Part shown: piece by piece, positions 2,731 through 60,888 of the stretch
Layout: the number at the start of each line of letters is the position of its first letter
Numbering within the stretch: the first letter of the stretch is position 1
Source: Natrinema halophilum
GTDB lineage: Archaea; Halobacteriota; Halobacteria; Halobacteriales; Natrialbaceae
Length of the DNA stretch: 64,000 bases
Direction: 5' to 3'
Assembly (NCBI RefSeq): GCF_013402815.2
Contig: NZ_CP058601.1
Span: 3,100,001 to 3,164,000 of the forward strand
Program-made: the position numbers and the translations under genes
The notes under the pieces: generated by a model
Told to the model about the DNA's origin: nothing
Databases searched by the model: none
The model's input: only the letters and a program-made list of their open reading frames with translations

Positions 2731-3662
2731 CTATCCCCGGTCATCGTCGCGTCGCCCTCGCGGGCCGCCATCGGCGGAAGGTCATCGACGAGGACGACCG
2801 CATCCCCCTCGAGAACCGCGGCTTCGTCGCTGTCCACGACGGTCGTCTTGATCCGGTACTTCGACCGGCCGAGATCTTCTACGACTTCGCAGATGGCGGT
2901 GACTCGCCCGCCGATCGGGAGCGGCGCGCGGAAGCTACTTTCCTGTGAGAGGTAAATCGTCAGTCCCGGCAGTCGGGCGAGGGCCGCACTGATGAGGCCG
3001 TTTGCGAGGACGCCGTGGACGATTTGCTCGCCGAACCGGGTTTCGGCGGCGTAGTCCGCGTCGAGGTGGAGCCGGTTGGTATCACCGGTCACCTCCGCGA
3101 ACGCTTCGACGTCGTCCTCGGAGATGGTCTTCGTGAACCGAGCGGTGTCGCCCACCGAGACGGTCGACTGAGCCTCGCCGCGATACTCGAATTCCCAGTC
3201 GTCGCGCTCGTACATCGTGTCCGTTCGCACCTGTCTCCGCGTCGGGTGGGTTTCGAGTCGTCCCGTTTCGCGGGCCAGATGCGGGACGTAGTAGGACAGT
3301 TCCGTCGTCGTGAGGATCCCCACGAGCGTCCTGTCATCCTCGTCGACGACTGGCAGGTGCTCGACGTCCGCCATCCGCAACAGTTCGACGGCATCGACGA
3401 TGGAGGCGGTCGGTGCAACCGTCGTCAGCGGCTTCGACATGACCGCCGCTAGCTCGAGGTGACCGAGGTCTTCCCGTTCGCAAAGACACGTCGCAAAGTC
3501 GCCTTCGGTAACGATACCGACGGGTGTCTCGTCTCGAACGACGAGCACCGAACTCACGTGTTCGTCGCGCAAGAGCGTCGCCGCCTCGGTTGCGGTTGCA
3601 TCGGGTGGAGCTGTGACCACGTCTTCGATCATGATCTCCGCGACGGATATCGTGTCGTGCAT
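2727..3662 (-). CDS. CBS-domain pair fused to MaoC-like hot-dog domain
   Basis: The 311-residue protein has two tandem CBS motifs (about residues 8-60 and 72-125, with typical VVRDETPVGIVTEGDF and VVDEDDRTLVGILTT strands) followed by a MaoC-like hot-dog domain (about 155-300). The latter shows FAEVTGDTNRLHLDADYA and the hydratase signature GEQIVHGVLANGLIS. MaoC domains act on (R)-hydroxyacyl/enoyl thioesters, and CBS pairs usually bind adenosyl nucleotides, so an energy-sensing acyl-CoA hydratase is plausible but inferred. CBS-MaoC fusion is uncommon outside haloarchaea. The gene converges on the lipoprotein gene. Confidence 0.85.
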   Translation of the reverse strand: MHDTISVAEIMIEDVVTAPPDATATEAATLLRDEHVSSVLVVRDETPVGIVTEGDFATCLCEREDLGHLELAAVMSKPLTTVAPTASIVDAVELLRMADVEHLPVVDEDDRTLVGILTTTELSYYVPHLARETGRLETHPTRRQVRTDTMYERDDWEFEYRGEAQSTVSVGDTARFTKTISEDDVEAFAEVTGDTNRLHLDADYAAETRFGEQIVHGVLANGLISAALARLPGLTIYLSQESSFRAPLPIGGRVTAICEVVEDLGRSKYRIKTTVVDSDEAAVLEGDAVVLVDDLPPMAAREGDATMTGDS

Positions 3663-3865
3663 TTGACGGTCCTACGTTGCCAGGCCCTATCAGTCGTGGG
3701 TGGGCTGGTGCGACCGATCGTTTATCTCTACTCGAGGACGCGTCGCGTGTCTGAACGGCTTCTCGCGATAGACTCCGGCGGAATTGACGAGGAGGGGCAG
3801 GCCTCGGATGAGGCAGTTCTTCCGTCACCGCTAGCGGTTTTCTGGCCGAACTATGATTGTAATGC

Positions 3866-4228
3866 ATGATTGGAATTAAATTTATTACTGTAGCTTGTGA
3901 GGGCCCGCGGAAACTGGCGGCCTTCTGGGCCGCGGCGCTAGACGGAGACCTGCGAGAACTCCCACCGACAATCGACCCGGTGATCGTCGAGCGTTCCGGA
4001 GACGGGCCGGCTCTCCTCTTCAAGGAGCTACCGAAAGGGACGACACGCGACTTACCGATCCACCTCGACCTGTCGACGTCGGATCGCGAGGCGACCGTCG
4101 AACGGCTCTGCGATCTCGGTGCCGCCGTCCGCGAGACGAAGACCGAGACGGTCGACACGCAGACAGCGACGTGGACGGTCATGGAAGACCCGGAAGGCAA
4201 CAGGTTCTGCGTGAGCGAATACCAGTAG
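3866..4228 (+). CDS. Small glyoxalase-like VOC-fold protein
   Basis: The 120 residues match the single-module glyoxalase-like (VOC, Glyoxalase_6 type) pattern: an opening beta strand with ACEGPRKLAAFWAAAL, a middle IHLDLSTSD strand and the closing VMEDPEGNRFCVSE. The conserved His in IHLD and Glu near the C-terminus could be metal ligands. The substrate is unknown. Members of this group are often annotated as 'VOC family protein' without a reaction. The gene stands alone, preceded by an AT-rich stretch in which I see no clear promoter. Confidence 0.8.
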   Translation: MIGIKFITVACEGPRKLAAFWAAALDGDLRELPPTIDPVIVERSGDGPALLFKELPKGTTRDLPIHLDLSTSDREATVERLCDLGAAVRETKTETVDTQTATWTVMEDPEGNRFCVSEYQ

Positions 4229-4386
4229 GACAGATGCGGCCACGCGAGCACGGCACATCACCGACGACCGCGGTCCACTTCGAATCACCGTCAACTGATC
4301 CGCGACGACTGATTCGACCGTCGACGACTGAAAACGGGAATCGAGACGGACGCGCCGCCGCGATGTCCCAATGAAACCGGACTGAA

Positions 4387-7630: not shown

Positions 7631-7810
7631 GGATAACCGCAGTCACGACCAGGATGGTTGTGAATGGCGGGTTAGACCGCGACCTTCCTGTTCTTCGTCT
7701 GCGGTGGTGGGACGCCGAGGGGAAGCTATCGTACTCCTGGTTCTCGTAGACCAGCGGGTGGAAACGAGCGACCACTCCGACCGGATTGTGACCACACGAG
7801 AGCGGAGCGA

Positions 7811-8914
7811 TCATTTTCGAAGCAGCTGGTCCACATCTCGCCTGAGTCGCTCCCCGTATCGAAGACGGATTTCCCGGGCTTCGTCTAGACTGACGTGATC
7901 GTGTCCGTCTATTTCTCGTGTGAGTGGTTCGTATTCCTGAACGGAGAATCCCATCCGCTCGAGGTAGGCAGCTAGCTGTTCCGACTCCAGGCCGTCGTGT
8001 ATAGCTTCCTGAACATAGTCGAGTACAGTATCGAACTCGGGAAGCGTTATTCCGTCATCTGTCACTTCTCCAGTGTCGCCCTCTATACGAACTTCTGCGT
8101 GGTAGAGCTGTTTCATCACGCTATCTACCTCCTTGGTTAGCTGGAGGATCTGACTTGGGAGTGATGTGTCAGGTGCTCGCCACTCGACAGTTGGCATCTC
8201 GTCACGTAACCGAACCGGTGTCCAAACGATATCTTGTGGCGAGAAACTCGCATCGATATCGACTTCGTTGACTCCCTCGTTCATGGACGCTTCTTTGAAC
8301 GAGTCGAAGAGCCGATCAAGTTGTCTCTCCCACTGCCCGACGGTATTGACGTAATCCCAGAGTTGACCGTGCAGTGGAAAGTATTCGTAACATTTCTGCC
8401 TATAAATATACGCTCGTGCGCTGTTCGCAGTTCGCTCACCACGGAAGTATGGCGATGAATTGAGCAGTGCCAGTGCCGGGTCGAGGCTGGTAAGAACGTT
8501 AAGTTGGTCTGTGACGTTTCGCTTCTCGAAATGTAGATGGGTCCCGGCACAATACTTCGCATAGGCAAAGTTGTCGCCGAGAACGCGTTTTTGTATCCGA
8601 CTTCGCTTGCTGGGTCGCACCTCGATCGGCCCACTATTGAGCGGAGTCCCGAGCGGGACGAGCGTCTTGTCGAGTTCATCAGCCTTGGAGAGCAGTTCAT
8701 CTAGTAGCTCTACGAACGTCGATCTGAGGGCCGCATACGACTCACACGGAGGGGTTTTTAGTTCGAGGAGGGGATACACGAACTCTTCTTCCACGAACTC
8801 CGAGTAATTTGTGAGTTCTCCCGGTTTCGTGAGGGCGCCGTCCTGATCGACGACCCAGTACTCTACTTCGATACTCTTTTGCATTAATTTGTTATCTTCC
8901 TCATTGTGACTCAT
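7811..8914 (-). CDS. GCS2-like carboxylate-amine ligase
   Basis: The protein (367 residues from the ATG at 8914) resembles the glutamate-cysteine ligase 2 / carboxylate-amine ligase family: IEVEYWVVDQDG near the N-terminus, LELKTPP, a CAGTHLHFE stretch in the middle (metal/ATP site) and PTVEWRAPDTS later. Family members join an amine or amino acid to a glutamate-like carboxylate using ATP. An AGGAGG Shine-Dalgarno at 8926-8931 supports the ATG at 8914 over an upstream one. It follows the aspartoacylase-like gene by 7 bases, so the two form an operon. It is divergent from the main haloarchaeal GshA-type enzymes, so the substrate is open. Confidence 0.75.
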   Translation of the reverse strand: MSHNEEDNKLMQKSIEVEYWVVDQDGALTKPGELTNYSEFVEEEFVYPLLELKTPPCESYAALRSTFVELLDELLSKADELDKTLVPLGTPLNSGPIEVRPSKRSRIQKRVLGDNFAYAKYCAGTHLHFEKRNVTDQLNVLTSLDPALALLNSSPYFRGERTANSARAYIYRQKCYEYFPLHGQLWDYVNTVGQWERQLDRLFDSFKEASMNEGVNEVDIDASFSPQDIVWTPVRLRDEMPTVEWRAPDTSLPSQILQLTKEVDSVMKQLYHAEVRIEGDTGEVTDDGITLPEFDTVLDYVQEAIHDGLESEQLAAYLERMGFSVQEYEPLTREIDGHDHVSLDEAREIRLRYGERLRRDVDQLLRK

Positions 8915-49070: not shown

Positions 49071-49981
49071 ATGGCAGAGACCGATTCGTCTGCGGTCTGC
49101 CCCGAATGCAACGGCAGATTACGGAGAAGGGGTACTGAAGTTGTCTGTGAAGAATGCGGACTCGTTGTCGCCGAAGACGCGATCGATCGTGGTCCGGAGT
49201 GGCGTTCGTTCGACGACGAAGAGACCGACCGTCGACGAACCGGCGCACCGCTGACCCGTTCAAGACACGATCACGGGCTCTCGACGGAAATTGGGTACGG
49301 TTCCGGTTCATATTCGGGGTATAGCTCACGAGTAACCGGGCGCAAGCGACGACAGATCGCACGTTTGCGCCGAGAACACAACCGTGCCCGGATCGCGTCG
49401 AAAGCGGAGCGCAACCAGGTCTACGGGTTCACGGAAATCAGACGGATGACCGCCTTGCTTTCGCTCCCAGACTCAGCACGAGAGCAGGCCTGCACCCTCT
49501 TTGAATCTGCACAGTCCGAAGGACTGTTCCACGGACGGTCACTCGAAGGATTCGCTGCTGCCGCGATCTATGCGACCTGCAGGACGCGTTCGATCGCCCG
49601 GACGACCGACGAGATTGCGGCTGTCGCGCGCCGACAGCGACGAACTCTCGGCTGCGTACACTGCCCTGAACCGGGAACTTGGTCTTCCAACGGGGCCGAT
49701 CGATCCCGCTCAGTACCTTCCCCGCTACGCCTCGAAACTCGACCTCGGGACGGCCGTCGAGCGTCGAGCACGCGAACATATCGATGCACTGCTCGAAGCG
49801 AGAAAAATCGGCGGCCGTAACCCGAGCGGCGTTGCCGCGGCTTGCCTGTACAGGGGCTGCCGGTGAACGCGACGAATGGCCCTCGGTCACCCAAGCCGCG
49901 GCGGCAGATGTCGCCGACGTCGCACCGGTGACTATCCGTTCGACGGTCGCTGCAATCGACGACCTCGGCGACGATCGGTGA
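49071..49981 (+). pseudogene. Transcription factor B (TFB/TFIIB) pseudogene
   Basis: The N-terminal part from ATG 49071 is typical TFB: zinc ribbon VCPECNGRLRRRGTEVVCEE, WRSFDDEE B-finger region, and first cyclin repeat start ERNQVYGFTEIRRMTALL, then GFAAAAIYATCR. At about 49625-49632 (gcgcgcc run) the frame breaks; the second repeat continues in another frame as ADSDELSAAYTALNRELGL and IDPAQYLPRYASKLDLG. At about 49853-49856 (gggg run) it breaks again to AGERDEWPSVTQAAAADVAD and the stop. TATA-like tttaaata at 49022-49030 remains. A truncated protein with ribbon and one repeat could still be made. Haloarchaea keep several tfb genes, so loss of one is tolerable. Confidence 0.88.
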
Positions 49982-52345: not shown

Positions 52346-52501
52346 TCATTCCGCCTCGGCCACTCCCTCAGGCTTTGATGCGAGTTGCGGACCACATCCC
52401 CTTCCAACGAGATAGCTAGCAGCAAAGTAAATATAGAAACGAATGAAACCATTCACAAATATAAATAATCTAGACAATCCTGGGAAGAACGCAGATACCA
52501 T
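52346..52501 (-). pseudogene. C-terminal fragment of a DUF4013-like paralogue
   Basis: The frame from ATG 52501 reads MVSAFFPGLSRLF, then IRFYIYFAASYLV and GRGCGPQLASKPE. It matches the end of the intact DUF4013 protein just upstream (GRFFP, NFYMYYIATYLI and ASGCGPQLTAV). The start overlaps that gene's stop as TGATG, so it may still be translated by reinitiation as 51 residues. Only the last helix of the family is left. A tandem copy of a candidate immunity gene is the simplest interpretation. Confidence 0.65.
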
Positions 52502-53190
52502 CAACTGTCTGCCACTGCGGTAAGCTGCGGCCCACACCCGCTCGCAATGAGGTATGTCGCGATATAGTACATGTAAAAATTAATTATGGCTAATACGACC
52601 AGCATGAGCTGGGGGTCGATCAGTAAACGGACATCGATTAAAGGGAAGAATCTCCCGAGCGTGTACACCAATATGCTGTATGGGATGAATGCCTTAACAT
52701 ACCGCTTTGAAATCCCTGCATTTTTTATCGCTTTGAAATCAAATCCAGAAGAGAATTGATCTTCTATCGCAAAGTTAGTTAATGCGATAGGTGCCACGTA
52801 CGATGTAATCAGGAACAAAAGAATACCAAATCCAGAAATAACATATATCCTAAAATAAGCGCCACCGAGCCATATCGATACGCTGGGAAGAAAGAAAATT
52901 ACACCGATGAGTAATGTCTTGACCCCATCGATAAACAATTCCTTCCCGTTGTTGAATTTTGGTCTGCTATCTATATCAGCCCCAGCAGCTCTCGCAACAC
53001 GCAGGTAAAAACCTGTCACGAATATTGTCAGCGCAGGTGTTGTGAGATATATAATGGAATATGATCTCGGATCTATCGTTAAGTCGATAATTATGAAAAT
53101 CGGATATAGTAACAGCAATCCTCCCCCAATCAACCCTTCCACGTACCATTCATCCCCCTTGAATGGATAGGAAACTGCCTCCCTAATCAT
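52501..53190 (-). CDS. DUF4013 multi-pass membrane protein, candidate immunity gene
   Basis: The 229 residues start MIREAVSYPFKGDEWYVEGL (typical DUF4013 opening) and have about five hydrophobic helices, including LIGGGLLLLYPIFIII, GVIFFLPSVSIWLGGAYF and ILLFLITSYVAPIAL. DUF4013 proteins are integral membrane proteins of unknown biochemical role. Here the gene is clearly AT-rich (about 30-40% in sampled lines) and sits directly downstream of the toxin-like gene and a small TM gene, which is the place and composition expected of an immunity gene. That role is inference. Confidence 0.75.
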   Translation of the reverse strand: MIREAVSYPFKGDEWYVEGLIGGGLLLLYPIFIIIDLTIDPRSYSIIYLTTPALTIFVTGFYLRVARAAGADIDSRPKFNNGKELFIDGVKTLLIGVIFFLPSVSIWLGGAYFRIYVISGFGILLFLITSYVAPIALTNFAIEDQFSSGFDFKAIKNAGISKRYVKAFIPYSILVYTLGRFFPLIDVRLLIDPQLMLVVLAIINFYMYYIATYLIASGCGPQLTAVADS

Positions 53191-53478: not shown

Positions 53479-53757
53479 TCAAAAATCAATATATTCAGAT
53501 AATGCTGGTCTTATGTGGGCAAAGTACAGGTAATATATGATGCACAGTAGGATCGCGCTAGCTATCTGTGTCTCGTTAGTGTATAGACCGTACACACCAG
53601 AATATGAATAGTCAAACATTGGGTGAATACGCTGTAATGCCGGATGAATATAATGGGTGAATGCGATAGCAACCAAAACTGCAATTATCGCCATTTCAAT
53701 AAATATTGAATTCTTCTCCATAACACGTTTCACATTTTCTAGGATTTCTTTCCCCAT
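53479..53757 (-). CDS. 92-residue two-helix membrane protein, candidate immunity gene
   Basis: The protein starts MGKEILENVKRVMEKNSIFI and has two hydrophobic stretches, IFIEMAIIAVLVAIAFTHYI and SAILLCIIYYLYFAHIRP, with a tyrosine-rich loop between. AT content is high and no family is recognised. It is the first gene after the toxin-like gene on the same strand (178 bases from the toxin stop), the position where cognate immunity proteins of polymorphic toxins usually lie. A membrane-located immunity protein would fit an exported toxin that acts at or across the membrane; unproven. Confidence 0.6.
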   Translation of the reverse strand: MGKEILENVKRVMEKNSIFIEMAIIAVLVAIAFTHYIHPALQRIHPMFDYSYSGVYGLYTNETQIASAILLCIIYYLYFAHIRPALSEYIDF

Positions 53758-53934: not shown

Positions 53935-55773
53935 TTATCCAGTCTGGGACTCTGGCAAGTCCTTGCACAATTGCTCAACGTCTTCGGAAACTTCCTGGCT
54001 TCCACACTCTTCTTCGAGAGTTCTGTATTTTTCAATGGTTTTACCTTTATCTAATACATTGTATGTATCCGGGAGGTTGTCCAGGATTTTTAGCGTCCGC
54101 TGCAAGTTTGAAGGTTTTGTTGCTGTCTTATCCAGCAATTGGATTGCTACTTCACCGTGAATGTCTTCTTCCAGCAGATATCTCATATCCGCTTCTGATA
54201 CCCCTCTCTTTTTCAGGCCCTCCATCTTTTTCAGGTTTCCTCTCTTTGCGGCCCAATCACGGACATTTCTCCAGTCTGAACCGTGCTTACCAGTTAGTTT
54301 GGTCGCTCTACCATTGGTATACTGATCAAGTGTTTTGGCATTCGCTGGGCTCTTTCCGAGATTCTTTGCCACTATTCCAGCATTGTCTGCTTTCGAACTT
54401 CCCTTCAGTGCTTTCTTGATCTTGCCAAATTTCTTCGTTGCTCGGGCGCTATCGCCAAGCACTGGGACCGCCCCGAGGGCCGAGATACCCGCCTGAGCGT
54501 GGTTGCCATGTCTATAGTGTGCTTCTGCATCTAATAGATCCCTGGCACTCCCATAATATGGAATGAAACTTCCCCCTAGATGTCCGACTTGATACGATGC
54601 AGATGCTGCTTGATTCGGTGCTACGCACGATGGATCATACGGATCACAAGTAGGATCGTACGCACTGTAACCCGGATTACCCCATGAACCCAAAGCTGCT
54701 CCTTTTATAGAATTCGTATAGAACTGGAAGTCGCCTCCAGACATAAACAGATTTTGCGGGCCTGGGATCGGTCCAGCCATCGTCATTCTCCCAATAATAG
54801 CCTCAGGCGAATGTTCCCAGATTGCTTTCCCGTTTCCATTGAGATCCCCCCGCAGCATACTCCCTGGTGTCGGGAGATCTTCATCGAACACCGTGTGTTT
54901 TGCAATAGTTCCTCCCGGATCATCCATGAAATTGTCTACTCCATTTTTTCCACCAGTAACGACGTCTCCCGCAAATTCCGTGCCGCCATTGATTTTCCCA
55001 CCGACGTACTCTTTTCCACCATTGATCTGCTCACCAGCAAATTCTCCGGCACCCTTTGCCTTACCTTTCCCGTAGGCTACCCCCTTGTCTTTACAGGTGC
55101 CCCATGTCCCCACACTCAGCACTTTACAATTCTCGTCGTCGCCACCCGAGTCACTGCTGTCACCCGAGTCACTGCTGCCACCCGAGCCACCGTCGCCACC
55201 TGAGCCCGTGTTTACCGGCGTTCCACCTTCCCGTCCATTCAGTTCGGAAACAGGCGTTCCTGACACGTCGGAATCTGCGTTCACCGTTATCGATTCAATC
55301 ACCTTCGACTCGTCGTACTCGCTGACGTCGATCGTGAGCCCTACACTGACGCTTTGTCCAGGCTTCAGAGAGATGGCGTTCGCTTTGCGTTCGATTGGGT
55401 GGCCCGATTTCACTGTGAACGTGACGTCTTCGTGGACTTCGTCCAGCCAGATTCCGATCGGCTGATCGCCCTGATTCGTGATCGTAAACACGTCTCGAAT
55501 ACCGGTCTTTGCGCCGCGATTGATACCGCCGCCGCCCCCTTTCTTGACTGATTCGTCCAACGCGAGCTGTAATTCACCGTTCTTCGTTGTGGCATACTCG
55601 CCGTTGGGTCCGTCTGACGGCTCGAGGCCGATGAACGCGTTCGCGTCGCCGACGACGTCGACGTTGGCATCCCGGTCTGCGGTGAGACTCGAGAATGCGC
55701 CTGGGCCGAAAACAGCGCTGCTGACGACTGCGACCGTAATTAACACGATGCCGAGTTGTTTCGTCCGGTTCAT
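53935..55773 (-). CDS. Secreted polymorphic-toxin-like protein with DUF1102/TasA-like N-terminus
   Basis: 612 residues: an exported N-terminus (LGIVLITVAVVSSAVFGPGA), a DUF1102/TasA-like beta domain (about 28-170; DRDANVDVVGDANAFIGLE, VFTITNQGDQPIGIWLDE), a Gly/Ser/Asp linker (180-213), three 11-residue repeats (243-277; EFAGEQINGGK, EYVGGKINGGT, EFAGDVVTGGK), and a segment (about 404-458) IPYYGSARDLLDAEAHYR ... ISALGAVPVLGDSARATKK, which matches the pre-toxin TG pattern placed just before the toxin tip in bacterial polymorphic toxins. Residues 460-612 (with HGSDWRNVRDW, EEDIHGEVAIQLLDK) match nothing I know and are the candidate toxic domain. Three close Cys pairs (216/227, 376/383, 590/603) could form disulfides. 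GC drops from 68% at the 5' end to 32-42% at the 3' end. SipW-like peptidase lies nearby. Confidence 0.75.
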   Translation of the reverse strand: MNRTKQLGIVLITVAVVSSAVFGPGAFSSLTADRDANVDVVGDANAFIGLEPSDGPNGEYATTKNGELQLALDESVKKGGGGGINRGAKTGIRDVFTITNQGDQPIGIWLDEVHEDVTFTVKSGHPIERKANAISLKPGQSVSVGLTIDVSEYDESKVIESITVNADSDVSGTPVSELNGREGGTPVNTGSGGDGGSGGSSDSGDSSDSGGDDENCKVLSVGTWGTCKDKGVAYGKGKAKGAGEFAGEQINGGKEYVGGKINGGTEFAGDVVTGGKNGVDNFMDDPGGTIAKHTVFDEDLPTPGSMLRGDLNGNGKAIWEHSPEAIIGRMTMAGPIPGPQNLFMSGGDFQFYTNSIKGAALGSWGNPGYSAYDPTCDPYDPSCVAPNQAASASYQVGHLGGSFIPYYGSARDLLDAEAHYRHGNHAQAGISALGAVPVLGDSARATKKFGKIKKALKGSSKADNAGIVAKNLGKSPANAKTLDQYTNGRATKLTGKHGSDWRNVRDWAAKRGNLKKMEGLKKRGVSEADMRYLLEEDIHGEVAIQLLDKTATKPSNLQRTLKILDNLPDTYNVLDKGKTIEKYRTLEEECGSQEVSEDVEQLCKDLPESQTG

Positions 55774-56042: not shown

Positions 56043-56639
56043 TTATTCACCGCTGCTTGAGCCACCGTTACCGCTCGAGCCGCTGTCTGGGCCGCCAGCG
56101 GCTTTTTCGTCGGATTCGGCGATGACCGTCACTTCGCCGCCGTCGTTACCTTTGATGAGGCTCTCGGCCCCGTTGCCGCTGTACTCGTATCCGGTGGTGT
56201 CGACTTCGATGCCGACGTTGATTTCCTCACCGGGGCTGATGCTGTTTCCATTGATCGGCTTCCCGGAGTCGCTGTCGTAGAAGGTGACGGTGTCGCCGGC
56301 TGATTGGTAATCGAGCCGGACGGATACTTCCTGAGCGCCCTGATTAGTGATCGTGAAGACGTTGTCTATCGTGGTGACAGCCTCCGGGTTGACACCCTGG
56401 CCGCTGCCTTTGATGTCGGCATTCTCGCTCAGGTAGAGCCCGAGTGTGCCGCCTTCGTTTTTCGCGTAGCCTTTTTCTTCGTTTGCTTCGAGACCGAGGA
56501 ATGCATCCTCGTCGCCTGTGACTTTGACCTCTGCCGTTCGATCCGCTTTGACACTCGTGAACGCGCCCGTCGCAGTGACCATCGACGCTGCGAGGATGAA
56601 CGCGACCAGTGCCAGGAGTTTGCCTCGTGGGACGTACAT
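56043..56639 (-). CDS. DUF1102/TasA-like secreted protein
   Basis: The 198-residue protein has a signal (LLALVAFILAASMVTATGAF) and a domain parallel to the toxin's N-terminus: DRTAEVKVTGDEDAFLGLE and VFTITNQGAQEVSVRLDYQS, with a Gly/Ser-rich end. DUF1102 proteins are cousins of TasA/camelysin, which SipW-type peptidases mature and which form surface fibres or are exported. It lies 270 bases upstream of the toxin-like gene on the same strand, so they may be co-transcribed. A stand-alone carrier or fibre subunit is likely. Confidence 0.78.
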   Translation of the reverse strand: MYVPRGKLLALVAFILAASMVTATGAFTSVKADRTAEVKVTGDEDAFLGLEANEEKGYAKNEGGTLGLYLSENADIKGSGQGVNPEAVTTIDNVFTITNQGAQEVSVRLDYQSAGDTVTFYDSDSGKPINGNSISPGEEINVGIEVDTTGYEYSGNGAESLIKGNDGGEVTVIAESDEKAAGGPDSGSSGNGGSSSGE

Positions 56640-56976: not shown

Positions 56977-57561
56977 ATGACTGAATGTATGGTTTCCGCA
57001 ATAGAGACGAGTGAAAACGAGGGGGACGAACTGACGAAAGATACGCTGTTTCACCTGCTCGAGAGCCGGCGACGTCGGTGGACCATCCGCTATCTCAAAC
57101 AGCGCGGTGGGAGAGCGGATATCGGGGACCTTGCGGAACAGATCGCCGCGTGGGAAAACGAAACGTCCACCGATCGGGTGTCCTCGCAACAGCGCAAACG
57201 CGCGTACACGGCACTACAGCAGCGTCATGTTCCGAGGCTCGATAAGGCGGGTGTCGTCGACTTCGACCGAAACCGTGGCACGGTCGAGGTCACCGATCGG
57301 ATGCAAGAACTCGATGTCTATCTCGAGGTCGTTCCGAAACGCGACATTCCGTGGAGTACGTACTATCTCGGTCTGGGCATCGTCAGTTGTACGTGGGTCG
57401 GTCTCATGGCGGTTGTGCAATCTCCGTTCGAATCGGCTCCAGACCTCGGCTGGGCGGCACTCATCGGATTCTTGTTTACTGCCTCCGCGGCGGTCCACAC
57501 GTACCGGTCGAACAAACTGCCAAACGACCCACACGACACGCTCCCGGAGTCTGAGCTATGA
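56977..57561 (+). CDS. DUF7344-like winged-helix protein with two membrane helices
   Basis: From the ATG at 56977 the protein has 194 residues. The N-terminal 110 form a winged helix (LTKDTLFHLLESRRRRWTIR, DIGDLAEQIAAWENET, YTALQQRHVPRLDKAGVVDF), as in haloarchaeal DUF7344 proteins. The C-terminal half has two hydrophobic segments (YYLGLGIVSCTWVGLMAVV and WAALIGFLFTASAAVHTY). A membrane-tethered DNA-binding protein could sense the surface state. It overlaps the next gene by 4 nt, so it is the first gene of the SipW operon and its likely regulator. Confidence 0.78.
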   Translation: MTECMVSAIETSENEGDELTKDTLFHLLESRRRRWTIRYLKQRGGRADIGDLAEQIAAWENETSTDRVSSQQRKRAYTALQQRHVPRLDKAGVVDFDRNRGTVEVTDRMQELDVYLEVVPKRDIPWSTYYLGLGIVSCTWVGLMAVVQSPFESAPDLGWAALIGFLFTASAAVHTYRSNKLPNDPHDTLPESEL

Positions 57562-58112
57562 AACGACGAAAAATGATCGGACTGGGACTGATGGCCGGTA
57601 GCGCGGGGTTCGTTGCGTTTCCGACGGGATCGTATAGTACCACCTCCGCTGATAGGGGCGCCGCTATCGCCGTCGCTGACAACTCGAACGCCTATCTCGA
57701 ACTCGAGACTGACGAGGCGAGAGTGACGTCTGCTGGCGAAACCGCTGTCTCTGTTGGATCGATAACGAACAATTTTGTCGACGAGGTCATGACGGTCGAT
57801 ATCTGGAGTACCGATGTCGCGGACTCGGTCGTTCAGGAGGTGTACCCATCTACTCGGTGGCTCAAGCCGGGGAAGTCCACCGATATAAATGCGACCGTCC
57901 GCTGTGAGAGCGGAACCCAGGAGGTCGAGTTGGTCTCGGTCGACATTGAGGCATCAGGTTCGGATACCGAGGTCTCGACGACGGAGACTGTCGAAATAAC
58001 GTGTGACGTTCCGGAACCGCCGGAATCAGACGACTCATCAACTGACTCGAACGAACCGTCTGAGCCTGGTGAACCGCCGGAGTTCCCATTCCCATTCCCA
58101 CTCCATCGATGA
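57558..58112 (+). CDS. Second DUF1102/TasA-like secreted protein
   Basis: 184 residues: a short signal (RRKMIGLGLMAGSAGFVAFP) and a domain with DRGAAIAVADNSNAYLELE followed by beta strands (VSVGSITNNFVDEVMTVDIW), the same core pattern as the other two DUF1102 proteins. The C-terminus is Pro/Glu/Ser-rich and ends FPFPFPLHR, an odd aromatic tail. It is coupled to the DUF7344-like gene by a 4-nt overlap and precedes the SipW-like peptidase, which probably cleaves its signal. Confidence 0.75.
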   Translation: MKRRKMIGLGLMAGSAGFVAFPTGSYSTTSADRGAAIAVADNSNAYLELETDEARVTSAGETAVSVGSITNNFVDEVMTVDIWSTDVADSVVQEVYPSTRWLKPGKSTDINATVRCESGTQEVELVSVDIEASGSDTEVSTTETVEITCDVPEPPESDDSSTDSNEPSEPGEPPEFPFPFPLHR

Positions 58113-58220
58113 TTTCGAGCACGGTGACGGAGCAGTTACGGTCCTGGAGGCCGGGAAGCGTAAGCCGGCCATCGATCGGAGCGATCGGTATCCTTCTCGA
58201 CCGATCGGAATGGTACAGCC

Positions 58221-59480
58221 GTGTCGTCATCGTCCGGAAATCAGGATCCGATCGGCCCGGGCGATGGGGAACCGAAACGGAATCGAGAGACAATCAGAAA
58301 CAATACATATAATTTAAATTATATGTGGGGACGCGTCAAATCAGCAGTGTACCTGTTCGTCGTCCTCGCTATCGTTGCCGTTGCGCTCGGACACGTCATC
58401 GGACAGCCCGTTCTCCTTTCGTATGTCATCAGCGACAGCATGGAACCGACGATTTCGGAGGGTGACGGCTATCTCGTCGTTCCGGCTGCTCTCTCCGGAC
58501 CACCTGAAGAGGGAGATATCATCGTCTTCGAGTCGAAGACGCTCGAGAACGACGGCGGACTCACGACCCATCGGGTGGCCGAACGGACGGATGAAGGATA
58601 CGTTACGAAGGGTGATGCGAACCCCTTTACCGATCAATCCAACGATGAGCCGCCAGTAAAAGAGGCCCAGATCGTGGGCAAAGCGGTTCAGATCGGCGAT
58701 GATCCGATCGTTATTCCACATCTCGGTAGCGCGCTCGGTCTGATTCGTGGCGGCGTCCAAAACACACAGCGAACACTTGCGACGACGTTCGGAATCCGAT
58801 CACTACAGGGATCGAACGGACTCGCATATCTCCTGTTCGGAGTTGGCTGTCTGCTTTTCGTCGGAAGCACTGTTACGGAACGCCGAAACGGTCCGAAGGC
58901 CCGACGATCCAGAAACCGTCGAACTGGCCTGTTCCCTCGCGGGATCCCGACGTGGATAGTCGCTGCCACGCTCGCCGGAGTACTTATCACATCGTTGACG
59001 ATGACGATGGTTCTTGCCGGTGGTACCCACGAATTTGGCGTCGTCAGCGCCGAGTCTCCCTCGCAAAGTCCGACCGTCATCGAGTCGGGTGGGTCGGATA
59101 CGATCGAGTACACCGTTCCCAACGATGGTGTTCTCCCGATCGTTGCCTACGTCGACCCGGCGAGCAAGGGTGTCGAGACTCCGGACAAGCAACTCCGCGT
59201 CGGCCCCGGCGACCGCGAGACGGTCGTCGTAGAACTTTCCGTCCCTGAATCGACCGGGTATTACAATCGTTATGTTACCGAGTATCGATATATCCGAATC
59301 CTCCCCCAGTCGGTAATCCACGCCCTCTATCGACTGCATCCGTGGCTCCCGATACTCGTGATCGATGTGTTAGTGTTCAGTCTCGTTTTTGCCGGTACAC
59401 TGGCAATTATCGGCCGCGGACGGATTCGTCCTCGCTCTCGTCGATCGCTTTTCCAGCGCATTAAGAGGTCATTCGGGTGA
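58221..59480 (+). CDS. sipW: SipW-like signal peptidase I with C-terminal ectodomain
   Basis: The Sec11/SipW-type type I signal peptidase has its Ser nucleophile in VISDSMEPTI, a His base in LTTHRVAER (instead of the bacterial Lys) and Asp in KGDANPFTDQ. A first helix (VYLFVVLAIVAVALGHVI) precedes it. After the catalytic part the protein continues with a second helix, an extracytoplasmic beta region (about 255-360) and two more C-terminal helices, an extension seen in haloarchaeal SipW proteins. Two starts are possible: GTG 58221 (419 residues) or ATG 58323 (385 residues, MWGRVKSAVYL), the latter at the edge of a 20-bp palindrome. It probably matures the DUF1102 proteins and the toxin-like protein. 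Confidence 0.88.
   Translation: MSSSSGNQDPIGPGDGEPKRNRETIRNNTYNLNYMWGRVKSAVYLFVVLAIVAVALGHVIGQPVLLSYVISDSMEPTISEGDGYLVVPAALSGPPEEGDIIVFESKTLENDGGLTTHRVAERTDEGYVTKGDANPFTDQSNDEPPVKEAQIVGKAVQIGDDPIVIPHLGSALGLIRGGVQNTQRTLATTFGIRSLQGSNGLAYLLFGVGCLLFVGSTVTERRNGPKARRSRNRRTGLFPRGIPTWIVAATLAGVLITSLTMTMVLAGGTHEFGVVSAESPSQSPTVIESGGSDTIEYTVPNDGVLPIVAYVDPASKGVETPDKQLRVGPGDRETVVVELSVPESTGYYNRYVTEYRYIRILPQSVIHALYRLHPWLPILVIDVLVFSLVFAGTLAIIGRGRIRPRSRRSLFQRIKRSFG
58306..58325. promoter_or_regulatory. Perfect 20-bp AT palindrome at the sipW start
   Basis: The half-site CATATAATTT (58306-58315) is followed directly by its reverse complement AAATTATATG (58316-58325). It is exact over 20 bases, 90% A+T in GC-rich sequence, and its last three bases form an ATG codon for one possible sipW start. 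It looks like an operator for a dimeric regulator or a promoter element. Inside a coding frame (if GTG 58221 is used) such a string would be hard to explain by codon use, so I favour the regulatory reading. Confidence 0.6.
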
Positions 59481-59484
59481 TACC

Positions 59485-60888
59485 ATGGTTGATCCACACC
59501 AGAAAACACGATTGAAAGTAACGGTAGATGAATATTTCACGGTACTCGTACTCACGTTCGTGCTAGTCGCAGCCGTCGGCGGTTGGGTGTCCTACACGAC
59601 AGTGGCTGCTCCGGGCACGACAGAAGAGCGGTACGTCAAGGGATCGTGGCAGGCTACCGGTGAGTTCAATCACAGCGCAACGGTCCAGAGGGATACACCG
59701 CTATTGAGGGAGGGTAACGTACACGTCAACGAGACGGTCTACCTTACGGAGGGGACACCAGCCCTCGCCGGAACATTTGCGTTCCAATTCGGTGGTGCAC
59801 CCGGCAACGCGACGGTCACGACCGAGTCGACACTCGTTAACTACGCCTACCACGAGGGATTGAAGACTCGTCTGTGGGAAACGGAAGCGTCGATCGGTTC
59901 GAAGAAAGAACAGGTGCAGGCGGGCGAACCGGTTTCCTCTAACTTCACCGTCGACGTCGGCGCGATTCGTGACGGCATCAACAGAATCGAGTCAGTCCAC
60001 GAGTCGACTGTGAAGCAAGGTGACGTCCGAACGGCTGTCGATATCGACGTGACTGTCGAGGGGACCGTCGCTAACCAACCTGTCGAACAGACGTACACCT
60101 ACACGCTTCCGATCAATAGTACAGATGGCTACTATGTCGTCCTTCCACCGAAGAAAGATGACGAGCAATACAACGTCATGGGTCAACGAACGGTGACCGA
60201 CACACCTAGTACGTTCGCCGTTCTCGGCTCATTGACGCTGTTCTTCGCACCGTTGGCCGCTCTGGGATGTCTCTATTACGGTCGCGAAAACGACTGGTTC
60301 ACGGTCTCCTCCGAAGCCCGTGCTGTGGCCCAGCGCGAAAAGGTCCGTTCGGAATTCGACGACTGGATCAGCACAGGGACGGTGAACGACGACGACCGAA
60401 TGATCGTCGAAATCGACTCGCTCGAGGATCTCGTCGACGTCGCGATCGATGCCGATCGTCGTGTCGTCGTCGATAGCGAGACGCACACGTACGTCGTTCT
60501 CGACGACGACGTCAGGTACCAGTTCGTCCCCGACTGGGCCGACTCGCTCGGAGACGATCCCGCCAATACGGCCAAAGAAACCGACGACGGCGATACTACT
60601 GACTGCAAGGACGAAACCGGGGATATCGACGCTACCAGTGATGGTGGTACCCACGATGATACCAGTGGTGATGGTGGTACCCACGATGATACCAGTGGTG
60701 ATGGTGGTACCCACGATGATACCAGTGGTGATGGTGGTACCCACGATGATACCAGTGGTGATGGTGGTACCCACGATGATACCAGTGGTGATGGTGGTAC
60801 CCACGATGATACCAGTAGTAATGGTGTAGATGGGGCTACCAACGACCAGGAAGCGCCGGATACTACAGCAGACGATACCGATGCCTGA
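59485..60888 (+). CDS. DUF5305 membrane protein of the SipW cluster
   Basis: From ATG 59485 the protein has 467 residues: a TM anchor (TVLVLTFVLVAAVGGWVSY), a long extracytoplasmic beta domain (about 45-245; DUF5305), a second helix (FAVLGSLTLFFAPLAALGCL), a cytoplasmic alpha/beta domain (about 275-365; VEIDSLEDLVDVAIDADRR) and a hydrophilic end with six copies of the 10-residue phrase SGDGGTHDDT. DUF5305 genes are regular partners of sipW in haloarchaea and may hold the substrate or peptidase. It begins 4 bases after the sipW stop. Confidence 0.8.
   Translation: MVDPHQKTRLKVTVDEYFTVLVLTFVLVAAVGGWVSYTTVAAPGTTEERYVKGSWQATGEFNHSATVQRDTPLLREGNVHVNETVYLTEGTPALAGTFAFQFGGAPGNATVTTESTLVNYAYHEGLKTRLWETEASIGSKKEQVQAGEPVSSNFTVDVGAIRDGINRIESVHESTVKQGDVRTAVDIDVTVEGTVANQPVEQTYTYTLPINSTDGYYVVLPPKKDDEQYNVMGQRTVTDTPSTFAVLGSLTLFFAPLAALGCLYYGRENDWFTVSSEARAVAQREKVRSEFDDWISTGTVNDDDRMIVEIDSLEDLVDVAIDADRRVVVDSETHTYVVLDDDVRYQFVPDWADSLGDDPANTAKETDDGDTTDCKDETGDIDATSDGGTHDDTSGDGGTHDDTSGDGGTHDDTSGDGGTHDDTSGDGGTHDDTSGDGGTHDDTSSNGVDGATNDQEAPDTTADDTDA
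60640..60819. repeat. 30-bp tandem repeat, six copies, coding
   Basis: The unit starting GATGGTGGTACCCACGATGA and ending AGTGGT repeats six times (60640, 60670, 60700, 60730, 60760, 60790), nearly without change until the last copy. Thirty is a multiple of three, so copy number can vary without breaking the frame; it encodes the DGGTHDDTSG phrase of the DUF5305 protein. Near-perfect identity at the DNA level suggests recent expansion. There are no spacers and no cas genes, so it is not a CRISPR. Confidence 0.95.

What the first reader, a model, noticed from the sequence alone, without database searches (positions are those of the whole stretch)
53935..54398. Unrecognised C-terminal domain (residues 460-612) as a possible new toxin fold
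The pre-toxin-like segment (about 404-458: IPYYGSARDLLD and GAVPVLGDSARATKK) normally precedes the active toxin domain. What follows has no motif I know, though it has conserved-looking polar positions (KHGSDWRNVRDW, DIHGEVAIQLLD) and a terminal Cys pair. It may be a nuclease, a membrane toxin or a novel activity.
Basis: partly seen in the sequence, partly recalled or inferred. Interest (0 to 1): 0.75.

Follow-up and report, generated by a model that had tools for sequence, protein, structure and literature searches.

The report
Archaeal fimbria-linked toxin with membrane immunity

Summary
The ORF (window 53935-55773, minus strand, 612 aa) and the described motifs are real. The C-terminus matches no Pfam or NCBIfam family, but it is not an orphan. 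The same layout (TafE-like fimbrial N-terminus, pre-toxin-like segment, helical repeats, short tail) occurs in 14 further haloarchaeal proteins examined. All 15, the window's included, have a small 2-3-TM protein of one family at the 3' end (window 53479-53757). Relatives with the same N-terminus and pre-toxin segment but nuclease-like C-termini have unrelated soluble neighbours. Displaced tail/membrane-protein cassettes lie behind some toxins. The membrane protein co-varies with the tail (Mantel r 0.53, p 4e-4), not with the TafE domain (r -0.08). This is the signature of a polymorphic toxin and its immunity protein. The likely effector is the last ~50-110 residues, including the Cys590/Cys603 tail. 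A membrane immunity protein suggests a membrane-acting toxin, as for the CdiA-CTo10 ionophore. Toxicity, disulphide, delivery route and target are inferred, not shown. I could not check whether Makarova et al. 2019 already list the scaffold.

The parts
55249..55773 (-). TafE/TasA-like fimbrial N-terminal domain with signal sequence (residues 1-175)
   Evidence: NCBIfam TafE E 5.7e-16, below its curated cutoff; profile A8 matches PDB 9p0a_C 'Pilin' E 1.2e-17
54607..55248 (-). low-complexity and Gly-rich linker specific to this protein (residues 176-389), with two further Cys pairs
   Evidence: sequence; absent from relatives
54394..54606 (-). haloarchaeal pre-toxin-like segment (residues 390-460), shared by toxins with different C-termini
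   Evidence: profile without window E 1.3e-9; same profile finds the nuclease-type proteins
   Evidence: AF2 pLDDT 83-92; profile without window E 4.3e-8; PDB helical-repeat and BurrH profile matches
53938..54078 (-). variable C-terminal tail (residues 566-612) with Cys590/Cys603; proposed effector tip
   Evidence: weak direct profile match E 0.006; co-varies with the immunity family across relatives
53479..53757 (-). predicted immunity protein, 92 aa, two TM helices, motif IHPALQRIHPMF
   Evidence: HMM built without window row E 6.7e-12; family adjacent to all 15 tail-type toxins; AF2 two helices
56043..56639 (-). standalone TafE-like fimbrial protein directly upstream in the same orientation
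   Evidence: NCBIfam TafE E 6.5e-13, DUF1102 E 7e-6; same arrangement in L118, L128, L115
52501..53190 (-). DUF4013 membrane protein, low GC, downstream; role unknown, possibly part of the cassette
   Evidence: Pfam DUF4013 E 2e-19; GC 0.43 versus 0.60 for the window

Best explanation
The protein is a haloarchaeal polymorphic toxin. Its N-terminus is a fimbrial (TafE/TasA-like) subunit domain that exports it and probably places it on or near a cell-surface fibre. A pre-toxin-like segment and an alpha-solenoid spacer hold out a short, variable C-terminal effector: the last ~50-110 residues, with a Cys pair that may form a disulphide. The effector most likely acts on the cell membrane of related archaea, by depolarising or permeabilising it, or by blocking a membrane protein. 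The 92-aa, 2-TM protein encoded just downstream is the immunity protein that protects the producer. Shown by comparison: modular C-terminus, adjacency, co-variation, displaced cassettes, low-GC cassette. Inferred: toxicity, membrane target, disulphide, fimbrial display.
For: A 2-3-TM protein of one family, undescribed in Pfam, lies at the 3' end of all 15 solenoid+tail proteins examined. It is absent from the loci of the nuclease-type relatives used as controls. Four of the 15 loci (L112, L114, L121, L125) were found only after the profile was built. Those nuclease-type relatives have soluble neighbours instead. Displaced tail/immunity cassettes: L112 carries two. One is 79% identical over 147 aa to the C-terminus of the Halocatena pleomorpha toxin and is followed by an immunity gene nearest to that toxin's own. 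L029 and L128 have an orphan tail behind the immunity gene. Tail-immunity co-variation: Mantel r 0.84 over 18 pairs, 0.53 over 11 non-redundant pairs (p 4e-4); TafE domain versus immunity r -0.08, p 0.64. The signal is strongest in the last ~110 residues. In the window, GC falls from TafE 0.57 to C-terminus 0.45 to immunity 0.37; 11 of the 12 other loci show the same order.
Against: No toxicity data. The window's own tail matches the tail profile only weakly (E 0.006), and two relatives (L028/L120, L065/L115) lack the Cys pair. The tail has no obvious TM helix, so pore formation is a guess. A 2-TM partner could also be an anchor or assembly factor. The immunity profile's seeds were chosen by adjacency, so the match between genome sets is partly circular. 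The co-variation test does not fully correct for shared ancestry.
Confidence: 0.72

Rival explanations
1. The C-terminus is a fimbrial tip adhesin or recognition module, and the 2-TM protein is its membrane anchor, chaperone or receptor; there is no toxicity.
For: TafE-like fimbrial N-terminus, a standalone TafE gene upstream, solenoid repeats typical of binding scaffolds, no enzymatic motif.
Against: Sister proteins with the same N-terminus carry nuclease-like C-termini (PBECR1 E 0.0019, EndoU E 0.006) and have no 2-TM partner. Tandem and toxin-free immunity arrays (L113, L115, L107) and displaced tail cassettes fit immunity, not assembly.
Confidence: 0.15
2. The C-terminus is a new enzyme (for example a nuclease) with HGSDW/DIHGE as active site.
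For: Position after a pre-toxin-like segment; nuclease-like domains occupy the same place in relatives.
Against: The motif positions are not conserved and lie in an alpha-solenoid; no nuclease match (only sub-significant colicin E5 matches); the partner is an integral membrane protein, unlike the soluble neighbours of the nuclease types.
Confidence: 0.05
3. Toxin/immunity pair as proposed, but the tail enters the cytoplasm or binds one specific membrane transporter, and the 2-TM protein blocks entry or shields that target; no membrane permeabilisation.
For: The tail is short, polar and without a TM helix; in CDI, a SecY mutation protects target cells from a membrane-depolarising toxin and partly from a tRNase toxin (PMC7858069).
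Against: Nothing specific; depolarisation simply has a closer precedent.
Confidence: 0.3

Closest known systems
Bacterial polymorphic toxin systems (Zhang et al. 2012, PMC3482391)
   Same: conserved N-terminal trafficking part, pre-toxin-like segment, swappable C-terminus, adjacent immunity gene, displaced cassettes, immunity arrays
   Different: fimbrial TafE-like trafficking domain; archaeal; effector and immunity families with no Pfam match; that paper found such systems generally absent from archaea, with rare exceptions in methanoarchaea and haloarchaea
CdiA-CTo10/CdiIo10 of E. coli EC869 (PMC7858069)
   Same: immunity protein with two predicted TM helices; C-terminal effector on a large surface protein
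   Different: no homology shown; delivered by two-partner secretion; depolarisation shown there, only inferred here
TafE family fimbrial adapter (NCBIfam NF052522) and PDB 9p0a pilin
   Same: homologous N-terminal domain (E 6e-16; profile E 1e-17 to 9p0a_C)
   Different: well below the family cutoff (58.7 versus 155 bits); the family model is 176 aa long and has no toxin-type C-terminus
Haloarchaeal T6SS-like toxin/immunity pairs of Halogeometricum borinquense (PMC11566945)
   Same: haloarchaeal toxin genes with downstream immunity genes, validated in Haloferax volcanii
   Different: delivered by a contractile injection system, with DUF4157 proteins among the candidates; the proteins here carry a fimbrial-type domain
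BurrH/TALE-type and designed helical-repeat proteins
   Same: short helix-loop-helix solenoid units (profile E 1e-6 to 5e-11)
   Different: weak structural matches (Z 6 or less), generic for helical repeats; no evidence of DNA binding

Membership tests
Polymorphic toxin system | conserved N-terminal part with different C-terminal domains | tested here: met
   TafE + pre-toxin with nuclease-like (L116, L119, L122, L123) or solenoid-tail C-termini
Polymorphic toxin system | adjacent immunity gene specific to the C-terminal type | tested here: met
   15 of 15 tail-type loci, none in control loci; co-variation with tail
Polymorphic toxin system | standalone or displaced toxin/immunity cassettes | tested here: met
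   L112, L029, L128; not seen in the window itself
Polymorphic toxin system | toxicity neutralised by the immunity protein | not testable with these tools
   needs expression experiments
TafE fimbrial adapter (NCBIfam NF052522) | score at or above the curated cutoff of 155 bits | tested here: not met
   58.7 bits, E 5.7e-16: a homologous domain, not a member as defined
Pfam pre-toxin domains | match of residues 404-612 to a Pfam family | tested here: not met
   no family at E 1 or better; called pre-toxin-like by position only
BECR/EndoU nuclease toxins | recognisable nuclease domain in the query C-terminus | tested here: not met
   no match for the query; present in relatives
Membrane-depolarising toxin of CdiA-CTo10 type | immunity protein with two TM helices | tested here: met
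   hydropathy and AF2 model
Membrane-depolarising toxin of CdiA-CTo10 type | sequence homology of the effector to CdiA-CTo10 | not tested
   no such sequence was fetched
Membrane-depolarising toxin of CdiA-CTo10 type | loss of membrane potential in target cells | not testable with these tools
   experiment needed
Halocin C8 (Cys-rich archaeocin) | homology to the halocin C8 peptide and its immunity protein | not tested
   no direct comparison was made

The most novel reading that the evidence does not exclude
Haloarchaea display toxins on TasA/Taf-type fimbriae: the fibre subunit itself carries a swappable effector (nuclease or membrane-acting tail) that acts on neighbouring cells by contact, a delivery route not described among polymorphic toxins in the sources I could read.
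Probability: 0.35. Interest if true: 0.82.

Novelty: new variant of a known kind. Interest (0 to 1): 0.62.

Why it matters
Archaeal weapons against other archaea are poorly known. This gives a concrete toxin/immunity family in several haloarchaeal genera, with natural orphan cassettes, that can be tested in Haloferax volcanii. It also raises the question whether fimbriae, known as biofilm fibres, serve as toxin carriers.

Tried and rejected
Catalytic reading of HGSDW/DIHGE: positions not conserved. Foldseek against PDB: nothing at E 0.001 or better; VIA-align best Z 6.0, to designed helical repeats, which is not diagnostic. Repeat HMM of the unit on the query: one weak unit at 519-533 (E 0.007), not above the best of 300 shuffles, so the repeats in the window protein rest on the structure model and on homology, not on internal periodicity. 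L007, L012, L013, L014 and L017 were taken as chance hits: unrelated or non-coding frames. Immunity topology by charge: suggestive only. Phylum-wide immunity search: only the window's genome, but the draw left out known carriers, so it says little beyond rarity. Searches for literature on Taf fimbriae and for 9P0A found nothing useful. Makarova 2019 (mBio) is not held. The foldable set was limited to the window and related-loci loci, so no complex of tail and immunity protein was modelled.

Full report
What is there. The ORF 53935-55773 (minus) encodes 612 aa. Residues 7-163 match NCBIfam TafE fimbrial adapter (E 5.7e-16, below cutoff) and, weakly, DUF1102. A profile of this domain from the window and relatives matches PDB 9p0a_C 'Pilin' at E 1.2e-17. 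The C-terminal part (404-612) matches nothing in Pfam or NCBIfam. The window is from a haloarchaeon (MCM and TFB genes nearby). Within 29 genomes of its genus only this one has the protein; others have TafE-like paralogues.

Relatives. Searching 391 genomes of the class with the C-terminus and then with a profile, and then scanning genome contigs, found a family in Halocatena, Halococcus, Actinarchaeum and unnamed Halobacteriales. The TafE-type members have the layout TafE-like domain, linker, pre-toxin-like segment, then C-terminus. One group ends in GW.H..RH nuclease-like domains (PBECR1 E 0.0019, EndoU_bacteria E 0.006, both below cutoff; best PDB profile match 'Toxin CdiA' E 4.5e-5, partial). 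Larger haloarchaeal proteins with PKD or other N-termini carry the same pre-toxin segment (L070, L073, L075, L076, L030). The other group, to which the window protein belongs, ends in short helical repeats and a tail, usually with a Cys pair. A profile without the window row finds the window C-terminus at E 5.8e-17 overall; the pre-toxin part (1e-9) and solenoid (4e-8) are clear, the tail alone is weak (0.006).

AlphaFold2 with 13 family sequences gives helical hairpins at residues 476-565 with pLDDT about 83-92; the pre-toxin part is poorly modelled and the tail scores about 70. KHGSDWRNVRDW (496-507) and DIHGE (537-541) lie inside this solenoid and are not conserved. In L070 a similar-looking segment (HGDEWIQSVARQGGDLRGAKRLSEQGVNPEVIKRL) stands before a nuclease-like domain (by eye, the profile match is not significant). 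The motifs are spacer, not active site.

The partner gene. Next to every one of the 15 solenoid-tail proteins lies a small 2-3-TM protein, most with the motif [IV]xPxL..[IL].P. An HMM built without the window's copy finds it at E 6.7e-12. Among 4026 ORFs of the window and 35 loci, its hits lie in the solenoid-tail toxin loci plus L127, whose toxin appears frameshifted. The nuclease-type controls have none. In 391 class genomes, matches below E 1e-12 occur only in the seven genomes that have tail-type toxins. Since the profile was seeded from those genomes, the informative part is the absence elsewhere, plus the four loci L112, L114, L121 and L125, which were not used as seeds. Six genes lie on the toxin's strand, nine are convergent. 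Arrays of three or four copies (L113, L115) and a toxin-free array (L107) also occur. AF2 models the window copy as two long helices.

Cassettes and co-variation. L112 shows toxin / immunity / orphan tail 1 / immunity 1 / orphan tail 2 / immunity 2. Orphan tail 2 is 79% identical to the Halocatena pleomorpha C-terminus, and its immunity gene is nearest to that toxin's. L029 and L128 have an orphan tail after the immunity gene. Tail and immunity distances correlate (r 0.53, p 4e-4, 11 non-redundant pairs); TafE and immunity distances do not (r -0.08). The best segment is the last ~110 residues. GC falls along the window gene from 0.57 (TafE) to 0.45 (C-terminus) and 0.37 (immunity), against 0.60 for the window; other loci show the same trend. 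These are hallmarks of polymorphic toxins as described in PMC3482391.

Mechanism. The 2-TM partner parallels CdiIo10 of E. coli EC869, whose toxin collapses the membrane potential (PMC7858069). I therefore favour a membrane-acting effector at the C-terminal tip, probably held by a disulphide outside the cell. Toxicity, target, disulphide and fimbrial display are inference. The standalone TafE-like gene upstream (window 56043-56639; also in L118, L128, L115) and a signal peptidase nearby suggest assembly into a fibre, but export as a free protein is equally possible.

Verdict. It is a new variant of a known kind: a polymorphic toxin with a fimbrial N-terminus and a new tail/membrane-immunity pair in haloarchaea. 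A catalogue of archaeal polymorphic toxins (Makarova et al. 2019) exists that I could not read, so parts may already be listed there.

Noticed in passing
window 49071-49890: TFB-like gene appears split over two frames (49071-49820 and 49501-49866): frameshifted pseudogene or sequencing error.
   Followed up: no
window 52349-52537 (-): Fragment resembling the 3' end of the DUF4013 gene 52501-53190, as if that end had been duplicated.
   Followed up: partly
window 57558-59480 (+): Further TafE/TasA-like secreted protein and a signal peptidase I; the region looks like a fimbrial cluster.
   Followed up: no
window 59389-60888 (+): Secreted/membrane protein with a tandem repeat of GGTHDDTSGD near its end.
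   Followed up: no
L112 5001-9617: Three stacked toxin-tail/immunity cassettes of different types behind one full-length toxin (Halobacteriales archaeon YIM A00010).
   Followed up: yes
L107 6460-7890: Three immunity-family genes in a row without a toxin gene (Actinarchaeum halophilum).
   Followed up: partly
L127 from 5731: Toxin gene of this family apparently frameshifted while an immunity gene remains (7714-7998).
   Followed up: no
L070 4287-8480 (-): 1397-aa PKD/Ig-repeat protein in the window's genus with the same pre-toxin segment and a nuclease-like C-terminus, beside a second long ORF with a repetitive sequence (2932-4281).
   Followed up: partly
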